The notes under the pieces are model-generated. The model saw only the letters and a list, made by a program, of their open reading frames with translations. It was not told where the DNA came from and made no database searches. Shown piece after piece: positions 51,007 to 61,478 of a DNA stretch of 64,000 nt. Both the position numbers and the translations under genes were made by a program. Source of the stretch: Halomicrobium zhouii (GTDB lineage: Archaea > Halobacteriota > Halobacteria > Halobacteriales > Haloarculaceae); contig NZ_FOZK01000001.1 of the NCBI RefSeq assembly GCF_900114435.1, forward strand, positions 1,240,001-1,304,000, in the 5' to 3' direction. Every line of letters begins with the position of its first letter. Position 1 is the stretch's first letter.

Positions 51007-51130
51007 GAAACTGTCCTGGGACGCTGTTCTCCTACGCGTTGCCGGCTCTCTCGATCGGTTAGTACAGGTGAGCTACGTATCGATCCGTGGGTTATGGGAT
51101 TGACGCTCTTCGCACGAAATTAAAGAACTC

Positions 51131-51520
51131 GAAAGCCCTCGGCGCGCTCGCCTCGTGCGACTCGCTGCGCTCCTCACTTCGTTGCGGTGCTTACGTCGTC
51201 GGACGTCGGCGACCACACCTCGCCCTTTCAGTCCGCCAGGATCAGCCTCGCTCGCGCGATGTAACGCGCTCGAGATTATGGCCACCAAACCTCCCCGAAT
51301 TCGGCGCGTCCGCGCCGAATCACGCTTCCTGACCGCTCGGAAACTGCCAGGCCGGGAGGCCGTCTCGTCGGCCGACCAGGGGAAGGGCTGGGCTGTTGTG
51401 CTGTGCTGGCCCTGGTGGACTGAAAGGGCGAGGCGGGCTCCGGGAACCCGGGCGTAGCAAGCACCGCAGCGTAGCGAGGAGCGCAGCAAGCCCCGGGACC
51501 GGAGCGCGCCGAGGGCTTTC
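51131..51520. repeat. Long nested inverted-repeat element A
   Basis: The outer arms are perfect 19-base inverted repeats (51131-51149 and 51502-51520, starting GAAAGCCCTCGG). Inner arms (51218-51234 and 51417-51433, core CCCTTTCAGTCC) pair perfectly over 17 bases. The stretches between the arms also pair imperfectly (around gctgcgctcctc and gcggtgctt), giving arms of about 110 bases. The 170-base loop contains a perfect 10-base palindrome (51299-51308 and 51311-51320). An oligo-T (51538-51543) follows on the plus strand. The same architecture recurs as element B. It could be a structured RNA, a MITE-like element or a cruciform. The rest of the 51007-51663 gap shows no gene. Confidence 0.8.
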
Positions 51521-51537
51521 TGGGTGTTGGCGGTCTC

Positions 51538-51543
51538 TTTTTT
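51538..51543 (+). terminator. Oligo-T tract after element A
   Basis: Six T residues lie 17 bases after the right outer arm of element A. If the element is transcribed on the plus strand, this would be its natural terminator; it might also end the gene at 50641. Confidence 0.3.
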
Positions 51544-51663
51544 CCAGTCTCCACTCACTAAATCACCTGCACAATTCACACACCCACACAACAACGATTC
51601 CGTCCCAGCGGTATCGAAAAGAGCGAGCGAAGCAAGGTAGACGAAACCGAACTCCCGTCCCGC

Positions 51664-59170: not shown

Positions 59171-60187
59171 TCACAGCAGCGCGTCGAGCACCGCGTCGTC
59201 GACGCCGAACCGGACCGGGTCCGTCGCCGGTGCGGCCAGTTCGTCGGCGAACGATTCGACGGCCTCGTGTGCGGGCCCCTCGTCGAGACCGCTCGTGTTG
59301 ACCATCCCGGCGAGCACGTCGGCCGGCCGGACCGGCGCGGCCATCGCCTCGTAGAGCGTGGCGTAGCTCGCGGGGTCGGGAATCTCGAAGGACTCGTAAC
59401 CGTGGACCGTCTCCTGGCCGGCGACGTGGCAGAGGACGAGGGCGTCGGGCATCGCGCCGTGGAGGATGCTCGTCGTCACGCCCGAGTAGGCGGGGTGGGC
59501 GATTGCGCCCTGGCCCTCGACGACGAGCAGGTCGTGGTCCTCGGCGGCATCGACGACCATCCGCTCGACGGCGCCCGCGGCGAAGTCCGAAATCACCCGG
59601 TCGACGACCATTCCCCATCCGGCGATCATCACCCCGGTCTGGCCCGTCGGAACGACGGCGGCGTCGATGCCCCGCTCGCGCGCCGCGTCGCGCACCTCGA
59701 AGGCGGCGGTCATCTTCCCCGTCGAGCAGTCCGTCCCGACGGTGTGGACGACGCGCGCGTCGACGTCGCCCGCTCGCCCTTCGGAGACCGAGAGGTCGTC
59801 GGGTGGCCGGCGGACGTCCTGTAGCTCGGCGCCGTGTTCGGCGGCCAGCGCGGCGAACTCCTCGTCGTCGGCCAGGAAGTCGTGCAGACCCGCGATGACG
59901 TCGTAGCCCCGTTCGAGCGCCCGTCGAACGTCGTCGCGCCAGGACGGGTCGAACGCGCCGCCGATGGGCGCGACCCCGACGATCAGCGCGTCGAGGTCGT
60001 CCTCGACGTCGTCGAGTGAGGCCACGATCGGGACGTCCGGGAGGTCCGGGACGTGGTCGCTGACCCGGTCGCCGGCGGTGTCCCGGTCCAGCAGGGCCCG
60101 GACGTCGTGGTCGCCGTAGCGCAAGATGCCCACGGCTGTCTTTGCCCGGTCGGGAAACGATTCGTGGGCGAGGACGGCGACTTGCAT
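59171..60187 (-). CDS. dgcN: DUF1611 family protein, DgcN-like N-acetyltransferase
   Basis: A 338-residue protein of the DUF1611 family, starting MQVAVLAHESFPDRAK. It has a Rossmann-like N-terminal domain, then a P-loop-type segment GTDCSTGKMTAAFEV (about residues 150-164) and VVEGQGAIAHPAYSGVTTSILHG. Characterised members named DgcN act with DgcA in D-glutamate catabolism. The two genes form an operon. A TATA-like catttagg about 28 bases before the ATG supports the start. The D-glutamate role is inferred from the pair. Confidence 0.8.
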   Translation of the reverse strand: MQVAVLAHESFPDRAKTAVGILRYGDHDVRALLDRDTAGDRVSDHVPDLPDVPIVASLDDVEDDLDALIVGVAPIGGAFDPSWRDDVRRALERGYDVIAGLHDFLADDEEFAALAAEHGAELQDVRRPPDDLSVSEGRAGDVDARVVHTVGTDCSTGKMTAAFEVRDAARERGIDAAVVPTGQTGVMIAGWGMVVDRVISDFAAGAVERMVVDAAEDHDLLVVEGQGAIAHPAYSGVTTSILHGAMPDALVLCHVAGQETVHGYESFEIPDPASYATLYEAMAAPVRPADVLAGMVNTSGLDEGPAHEAVESFADELAAPATDPVRFGVDDAVLDALL

Positions 60188-60275
60188 ACCTGTGAAATCG
60201 TCCGCACGCCTCCTAAATGTTCGTCGGTGAGGGAGAACGACTGGATTGTCTGAATCGAACTACACCACCAACGAT

Positions 60276-60543
60276 AACAGCCCGAAAGCCCCCGCTGTCT
60301 CGGGTCGAGGGCTCCCGTGCGCTCCTCGGCCTTCGGCCTGCGGTGCTACGGGGAGCCGTCTTCCCCGACACAGCGGCCCCTTTCAGTCCCACCCGTTTCT
60401 CCTGGCTAATCGGCCGAACCGGGTGGGACTGAAAGGGGCGACGCTCTCACCGAACCCTGGCGACGTAAGCACCGCAGCGACCGCAGGGAGCGAGGAGCGC
60501 AACGAGTCACGGGAGGTGAGAGCGTCGGGGCTTTCGGGCTGTT
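60276..60543. repeat. Long nested inverted-repeat element B
   Basis: The outer arms are perfect 17-base inverted repeats (60276-60292 and 60527-60543, core GCCCGAAAGCCCC). The inner arms are perfect 20-base repeats (60376-60395 and 60420-60439, core CCCCTTTCAGTCCC) with a 24-base loop. A third pair, GACGCTCTCACC (60440-60451) and its complement (60515-60526), lets the right half fold on itself around gcaccgcagcg...gagcgaggagcgca. The architecture, the CCCTTTCAGTC core and this motif are shared with element A. The rest of the 60188-60584 gap shows no gene. Confidence 0.8.
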
Positions 60544-60584
60544 GTTTCTGGTACCGTCGCTCTCCGTAAAGCCGGTTCCAAGAA

Positions 60585-61478
60585 CTACAGCGTTCGCAAC
60601 TGAAGGGTCCAGAACTCGTGGAAGGCGTCCCCAAGCGCAGACTCCGGCTCGCCCGTCGCGTCGACACTTTGTGTCACGTCGGCGACGTCGTCGAACTGGG
60701 AGAGGAGGCTGCGCTCGCCGACGACGAAGAGGCGTTCGGCGTCCCGCTCTTCGAGCGCCGCCTTGCACCGCTCCAGGTGCGAATCGATCTGGGCGTCACG
60801 GAGGCGCTCGAAGCGGGCCTGGGAGAACCCGCCCTTGGAGTGCTGGCTCTTCAGGTCGGCGTCGAAGCCGTGGAAGGCGGTGCGCTCCCGACCCTGGTAC
60901 TCGCCGAGGGCGAAGAGATCCGAGCGGACGAGTGCGAGGGCGTACTCGCCGGTGGGTTCGAACCACCCGCGCTGGAGGCTGACGCGGTCGTCCCAGGCGG
61001 CGAAGGGTTTGGGCGGGACGGGGACGGAGACGCAGGCGCCCAGGAGGCCGGCGTCGTCGGTGACGGCCAGGCAGGGGGCAGCGCGGGCGACCAGCCCGGC
61101 GCGGTCGCCGAAGGCGTCGCGGACGGCCGGCGGGAGGTCGTGTTCCGCGTCGACGAAGGCAGTGAACACGCCCTCGGGACCGGTCTCGACGGATTCGAGT
61201 CGGTCCAGTATCTCGTCGCGCCGGTCGCCGGCGACGGGTTCTTCGCGTCGGAAGTCGGCGGTCGAATCGTCGCGCTTGAGCCGCTCGACGCGGTCCTCGA
61301 GTTCGGTGACGCGGTCCTCCAGGTGGTTGACGCGCTGCTGGGCCGCCTGGCGTTCGCTCACGGCCTCGGTGCGGCGCTCGGACTCGGCGTCGCGTTCGCG
61401 TTCGAGGTGGCGCTTCTCTTCCTCCAGCGTCACGATCCGCGCTTTCAGGCTCGCCCGGCCGAGCAACCTGTCGATCAT
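60585..61478 (-). CDS. Vms1/ANKZF1-type peptidyl-tRNA hydrolase
   Basis: A 297-residue protein. The N-terminal coiled coil (about residues 12-70) is followed by an eRF1-like VLRF1 domain. The region QHSKGGFSQARFERLRDAQI (about 212-231) carries the GxxQ motif with the catalytic Gln 220, corresponding to the Vms1 Gln that releases stalled peptides from 60S peptidyl-tRNA. Archaeal members lack the zinc finger, ankyrin and p97-binding parts of Vms1, as here. Role: release of the nascent chain in ribosome quality control. A hydrophobic GEYALALVRSDLFALGEY part is in the expected place. Confidence 0.8.
   Translation of the reverse strand: MIDRLLGRASLKARIVTLEEEKRHLERERDAESERRTEAVSERQAAQQRVNHLEDRVTELEDRVERLKRDDSTADFRREEPVAGDRRDEILDRLESVETGPEGVFTAFVDAEHDLPPAVRDAFGDRAGLVARAAPCLAVTDDAGLLGACVSVPVPPKPFAAWDDRVSLQRGWFEPTGEYALALVRSDLFALGEYQGRERTAFHGFDADLKSQHSKGGFSQARFERLRDAQIDSHLERCKAALEERDAERLFVVGERSLLSQFDDVADVTQSVDATGEPESALGDAFHEFWTLQLRTL

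What the first reader, a model, noticed from the sequence alone, without database searches (positions are those of the whole stretch)
60276..60543. Element B shares the architecture of element A, defining a dispersed family
Element B, 9 kb away, has the same order: outer arms containing GAAAGCCC, inner arms with a CCCTTTCAGTC core, and a gcaccgcagcg...gagcgaggagcgca motif in the right half. Sequence between the arms differs, so structure is conserved more than sequence. Two such elements in 64 kb suggests a repeated mobile or regulatory RNA element. Its right half can fold alternatively (60440-60451 with 60515-60526), which would allow a switch.
Basis: partly seen in the sequence, partly recalled or inferred. 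Interest (0 to 1): 0.7.

Follow-up and report, generated by a model that had tools for sequence, protein, structure and literature searches.

The report
Dispersed haloarchaeal hairpin-pair mobile repeat
Element B is one of dozens of non-coding DNA repeats in this salt-loving archaeon, each built from two mirror-image copies of a hairpin unit found across the class Halobacteria, and it behaves like a mobile repeat carried by an unknown enzyme rather than like one regulatory RNA switch.

Summary
GACTGAAAGGG occurs 144 times in the 4.25 Mb genome, against 1 for a control pattern. Elements A and B are inverted pairs of one roughly 100-nt unit, GACTGAAAGGGGC-[hairpin arm]-GGGGCTTTC. A covariance model built only from other genera finds all four units in the window (E 1e-16 to 1e-22) and matches in 50 of 59 Halobacteria genomes; a related pattern is essentially absent outside the class. 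The helix covaries strongly; Rfam has no family for it. On each unit's own strand G.T pairs are tolerated far more than A.C, in both mirror-image halves, so the single hairpin, not one RNA across the palindrome, is the likely functional form. Copies are intergenic in every gene context, uneven between congeners, missing at the B site in four congeners, and mosaic. At 18 orthologous loci the element is only 54-77% identical (flanks mostly 84-97%) and inverted in five, B included. Best reading: a non-autonomous REPIN/PATE-like mobile repeat acting as single-stranded DNA, remodelled by recombination; mover unknown (Y1 transposases do not track copy number). The "switch" helix is simply the right arm and coexists with the others.

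The parts
60232..60581 (.). Element B as it differs between species: interval between flanks that are ~93% identical in the sister genome G281; the G281 version fits better inverted (0.79 vs 0.71)
60276..60292 (+). outer stem, left strand (AACAGCCCGAAAGCCCC)
60527..60543 (+). outer stem, right strand (GGGGCTTTCGGGCTGTT)
60284..60388 (-). left hairpin unit of B (GACTGAAAGGG..GGGCTTTC read on the - strand); arm stem 60292-60298 with 60370-60376
   Evidence: 89.7 bits, E 5.8e-19 with a model from other genera
60376..60439 (.). central arm of B (24-nt inverted repeat, arms 60376-60399 and 60416-60439)
   Evidence: 103.9 bits, E 2.8e-22
51008..51662 (.). Element A (long subfamily), interval between conserved flanks; same orientation in G281
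51131..51233 (-). left hairpin unit of A
   Evidence: 82.6 bits, E 2.6e-17
51418..51520 (+). right hairpin unit of A
   Evidence: 79.2 bits, E 1.6e-16

Best explanation
Element B is a two-armed copy of a non-autonomous mobile DNA repeat of haloarchaea. The basic unit is a roughly 100-nt hairpin: a base helix GAAAG/CTTTC, a purine internal loop, a variable 11-13 bp stem and a semi-conserved tip, flanked by the fixed motifs GACTGAAAGGGGC and GGGGCTTTC. Inferred mechanism: a trans-acting enzyme, not identified, recognises the folded single strand of a unit, most likely DNA exposed during replication or excision, and so spreads single units and inverted pairs. Copies at fixed loci are then reshaped by recombination between dispersed copies and between the two inverted halves, which swaps arms and inverts elements. 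Shown: the family, the helix, the strand asymmetry, intergenic dispersal, sites without the element, mosaicism and inversion. Inferred: single-stranded DNA as the active form, and the trans-acting mover.
For: 144 core motifs in the genome vs 1 control. Exact-core counts in the same genus range from 0 to 157. The site of B lacks the element in G041, G059, G114 and G292. Copies are intergenic with no orientation preference, and no gene family recurs beside them. Covariation: 98.0% of cells paired vs 69.5% shuffled, covariation score 0.674 vs 0.156, 14 of 18 pairs changed on both sides; 22 of 28 pairs in 39 units from many genera. G.T 46 vs A.C 7 on the unit's own strand, with the same excess in both mirror-image halves; it persists without the last stem positions. 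Nearly identical blocks are shared between distant loci (e.g. 218 bp at 96.8%, 127 bp at 98.4%), often bounded at GGACTGAAAGGG. Orthologous elements are inverted in 5 of 18 pairs. Outer ends resembling GGTCAGTACAG..GAGCGATCG recur in this genus and in a genus of another family.
Against: No clean target duplication or precise insertion boundary was found. No transposase is linked; Y1 transposase (PF01797) is absent from three high-copy genomes and present in several with few or no exact copies. Most compared loci carry an element in both sister species, so recent transposition was not seen directly. G041, with no exact core, still has 10 weaker model matches, so absence in congeners is relative. 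The G.T over A.C excess would fit an RNA equally well.
Confidence: 0.55

Rival explanations
1. Each hairpin unit is a small structured RNA (or an RNA-processing or protein-binding hairpin) transcribed in the direction GACTGAAAGGG to GGGCTTTC, and the inverted pairs are two divergent RNA units.
For: Strong covariation, G.U tolerance on one strand of each unit, conserved motifs AAGCACC and GCGCAGCGAG in the tip across many genera.
Against: No orientation preference relative to flanking genes (gene on the 5' side of solo units in the same direction 23, opposite 23). Copy number varies widely between related genomes. No Rfam family.
Confidence: 0.2
2. The whole of B is one regulatory RNA whose right half switches between two folds.
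For: The + strand RNA folds very stably.
Against: The claimed alternative helix is in the same minimum-energy fold as the others. The - strand folds almost as well (-182.8). The left halves show G.T excess only when read on the opposite strand. Gene contexts are unrelated and unoriented. Arms differ or are inverted at orthologous loci.
Confidence: 0.03
3. An IS200/IS605-derived PATE-like element moved by a Y1 HUH transposase (TnpA), by analogy with Haloquadratum PATEs.
For: Near-terminal hairpins, single-strand asymmetry, heterogeneous copies and end-only remnants as described for PATEs (PMC3119063).
Against: PF01797 shows no relation to copy number. No full unit was found at the ends of eight IS200/IS605 loci scanned with the model; the one weak hit is a shortened unit beside one of them.
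Confidence: 0.12
4. Architectural DNA sites (cruciform, nucleoid or recombination sites, or bidirectional terminators) kept by selection rather than mobile repeats.
For: Intergenic, near-perfect palindromes, some excess between convergent genes (15 of 43 with both genes called).
Against: Strand asymmetry is not expected of a cruciform. No exact copies in some congeners and sites without the element.
Confidence: 0.1

Closest known systems
REPINs / BIMEs (inverted doublets of REP hairpins with RAYT transposases; PMC3116915)
   Same: Many short intergenic hairpins, largely as inverted pairs with a less conserved spacer and compensatory changes, plus solo units; predicted to act as ssDNA or RNA hairpins.
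   Different: Unit about 100 nt instead of a REP of 20-40 nt; fixed motifs are GACTGAAAGGGGC and GGGGCTTTC; found in Halobacteria; copy number does not track PF01797 transposases.
PATEs and SMRs of Haloquadratum walsbyi (PMC3119063)
   Same: Transposase-free, palindrome-associated, heterogeneous, numerous, no target duplications, end-only remnants, nested insertions.
   Different: Sequence homology was not tested. These elements have imperfect inverted ends, while PATEs are defined as lacking terminal inverted repeats.
MITEs of haloarchaea (PMC3119063)
   Same: Non-coding, a few hundred bp, imperfect terminal inverted repeats.
   Different: No parent transposon with the same ends and no target duplication found.
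Rfam structured RNA families
   Same: Covarying helix with conserved loop motifs.
   Different: No family reaches its gathering score; the only weak hits are microRNA hairpin models on the central palindrome.

Membership tests
REPIN/REP (RAYT-mobilised) | many extragenic palindromic hairpins arranged as inverted doublets | tested here: met
   convergent core pairs; 63 of 116 units in other genera have an inverted partner within 450 nt
REPIN/REP (RAYT-mobilised) | cognate RAYT / Y1 transposase in the genome | tested here: not met
   PF01797 absent from high-copy genomes G231, G026, G146
REPIN/REP (RAYT-mobilised) | REP length 20-40 nt with GTAG or CGTC tag at the hairpin foot | tested here: not met
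   units are about 100 nt; foot motifs are GACTGAAAGGGGC and GGGGCTTTC
PATE (IS605-derived) | near-terminal palindromes related to those of IS605-type transposons | tested here: inconclusive
   no full unit at eight IS200/IS605 loci; one shortened unit beside one
PATE (IS605-derived) | no terminal inverted repeats | tested here: inconclusive
   the two ends are weakly similar in inverted orientation
MITE | terminal inverted repeats shared with an autonomous transposon | tested here: inconclusive
   the end motif search in the own genome gave 6 sites against 2 control sites and no transposon-associated copy was identified; limited sensitivity
MITE | target site duplication | tested here: inconclusive
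   none seen, but boundaries are eroded
Rfam RNA family | match above gathering score | tested here: not met
Structured RNA | transcribed | not testable with these tools
   no expression data

The most novel reading that the evidence does not exclude
A class-wide haloarchaeal single-strand hairpin unit, with its own unknown mobilising enzyme or RNA role, that has been copied, paired and inverted within genomes across Halobacteria and is neither a RAYT/IS605 system nor a known RNA family.
Probability: 0.3. Interest if true: 0.8.

Novelty: new variant of a known kind. Interest (0 to 1): 0.62.

Why it matters
Units of this family are present in most haloarchaeal genomes sampled (50 of 59), yet Rfam has no family for them and I found no description in the papers searched. 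They are natural candidates for driving rearrangement, since they are dispersed inverted repeats that demonstrably exchange and invert. If the single-strand reading is right, they point to an unrecognised ssDNA-handling mobiliser in archaea, or to an abundant unrecognised RNA.

Tried and rejected
Replication-strand bias of orientation: long elements on C1 form blocks of like orientation, but the switches do not match the orc1/cdc6 genes on C1, and G175 shows no clear bias; dropped. An autonomous copy between two distant halves at L061: the halves belong to different subfamilies. Recurrent neighbouring gene family: none. Y1 transposase correlation: none. End motif GTCAGTACAGNGTG as a handle on a parent transposon: only 6 sites against 2 control sites. 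Target duplications: none visible. Carriage in viral contigs: no exact hit, on a narrow exact pattern. Literature searches by motif and by concept gave no description of this family; only open-licence papers were searched.

Full report
OBSERVATION. Element B lies at 60276-60543 as described. The inner core and its complement occur in the window only at A and B (4 sites with up to one mismatch; mean 0.78 in shuffles, none of 100 with 4). B folds as a four-way junction: an outer stem (60276-60292 / 60527-60543), a left arm, a central arm (60376-60439) and a right arm (60440-60451 / 60515-60526). The energy is -186.2 kcal/mol, z -11.9; the opposite strand gives -182.8. The helix proposed as a switch is the right arm and coexists with the rest. 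B sits between a DUF1611 gene (59171-60187, -) and a VLRF1-like release-factor gene (60585-61478, -).

FAMILY IN THIS GENOME. The window is a 64 kb piece of a 4.25 Mb haloarchaeal genome. GACTGAAAGGG occurs 76+68 times, against 0+1 for the reversed control. Fetched stretches gave 46 distinct paired elements. They form two subfamilies. One is short and B-like, with a central arm of 50-60 nt. The other is long and A-like, with a central part of roughly 190-376 nt and a conserved consensus. In the long subfamily, conservation runs a further 60-70 nt outside GAAAGCCC on each side, and the two ends are weakly similar to each other in inverted orientation.

THE UNIT. Other genera often carry a single half, so the elementary unit is GACTGAAAGGGGC-[arm]-GGGGCTTTC, about 100 nt, and A and B are inverted pairs of it. 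39 units from named haloarchaeal records align well. RNAalifold finds 28 pairs, 22 of them with changes on both sides. In an alignment of 33 units, including a genus of another family where the motifs read GACTCAAAG..CTTTG, the base helix itself covaries (G-C 21, C-G 12 at its first pair). Over 18 pairs, 98.0% of cells are paired versus 69.5% in shuffles; the covariation score is 0.674 versus 0.156 in shuffles and 0.06-0.09 for slid controls. The genus structure of the sample means these counts are not independent events. A covariance model built only from other genera finds exactly four units in the window, the two halves of A and of B (E 1.6e-16 to 2.8e-22), and units in 50 of 59 Halobacteria genomes (counts per genome were capped by the tool). 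The unit pattern is in 19 of about 53 Halobacteria genomes sampled and in 1 of 242 other genomes of the phylum, where the matched sequence looks unrelated. All listed named hits in genome contigs are haloarchaea.

WHICH STRAND. Read from GACTGAAAGGG to GGGCTTTC, stems tolerate G.T and not A.C: 46 versus 7 across genera. In the long elements of this genome and of G281 the counts are right halves 14:3 and 14:2, left halves 9:0 and 18:1, each read in its own direction. The scoring treated G.T and A.C alike. Part of the excess sits at the last stem positions, but it remains without them. A double-stranded cruciform would give no asymmetry, and a single RNA over the whole palindrome would give opposite signs in the two halves. 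So the single unit, as ssDNA or as its own RNA, is the likely functional form. These data do not separate ssDNA from RNA.

DISPERSAL AND REMODELLING. Copies are intergenic between convergent (15), divergent (10) and tandem (18) gene pairs; solo units in other genera show no orientation preference. No gene family recurs next to them. Exact-core counts in the same genus are 0, 0, 0, 29, 144 and 157, although G041, one of the zeros, has 10 weaker model matches. B's site is occupied in G281 (Halobacteria archaeon HArc-gm2, judged from matching contig lengths) and lacks the element in G041, G059, G114 and G292. At 18 orthologous loci compared with G281 (flanks mostly 84-97% identical), the element itself is 54-77% identical read forward, and 5 of 18, including B, fit clearly better inverted. 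Distant loci in this genome share blocks of 93-100% identity that stop inside elements, often at the core motif. Position is thus more stable than content: arms are exchanged and elements invert. Because these are inverted repeats, ordinary homologous recombination is enough to explain the exchange and inversion, and no dedicated recombinase is required.

MECHANISM. I favour a non-autonomous mobile repeat recognised as a folded single strand (0.55). Shown: family, helix, strand asymmetry, dispersal, sites without the element, mosaicism. Inferred: movement in trans and ssDNA as the substrate. Not shown: the enzyme, target duplications, recent transposition. The one presence/absence case between sister species (L163 versus L323) is not a clean insertion.

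KNOWN KINDS. It works most like REPINs (PMC3116915) and resembles Haloquadratum PATEs and SMRs in being transposase-free and palindrome-based (PMC3119063). It is not filed as a member of either. The RAYT/Y1 link was tested and not met, and the IS605 link is inconclusive. Rfam has no family for it. I found no description in the open papers searched; subscription papers and insertion-sequence databases were not available, so prior description elsewhere is possible.

Noticed in passing
L022, L062, L068, L048 flanks: Tandem units of about 60-68 bp (GAAAGCCCTCGGCGCGCTCTCTGGAGTCGGAATCGAGACCGCCAACA..) sit beside some long elements, like end-only remnants.
   Followed up: partly
L018, L022, L033, L036, L047, L063 arms: A recurrent nested palindromic insert (..TTCGAGAGAGCGAAGCTCTCTCGTCATCACGAAAGGCGC..CGAAC..) interrupts arms of several copies.
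   Followed up: no
L080, L083 (G175): Tandem repeats of about 26 nt (CGGTGACACcaaCCACC) just upstream of solo units, and tandem end repeats downstream.
   Followed up: no
L029, L034, L052, L179 arms: A second arm type with a GTCGCTCAGCGGGATACCC..GGGTAGGGCCCGCTGAGCGAC hairpin replaces the usual AAGCACC arm.
   Followed up: no
G009, G027, G038 (L349-L358): In another family's genus the motifs read GACTCAAAG..CTTTG, with an end GGTCAGTACAG..GAGCGATCG in some copies like that of the window genome's long elements.
   Followed up: partly
window 60374-60441: Weak Rfam hits to microRNA models (mir-4433, E 6e-6, well under its gathering score) on the central palindrome; almost certainly chance matches of a perfect hairpin.
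   Followed up: yes
L343 3216-3245: A shortened unit lies about 90 nt past the end of the ORF that follows the Y1 transposase (the expected TnpB place) of an IS200/IS605-type element in G195.
   Followed up: partly
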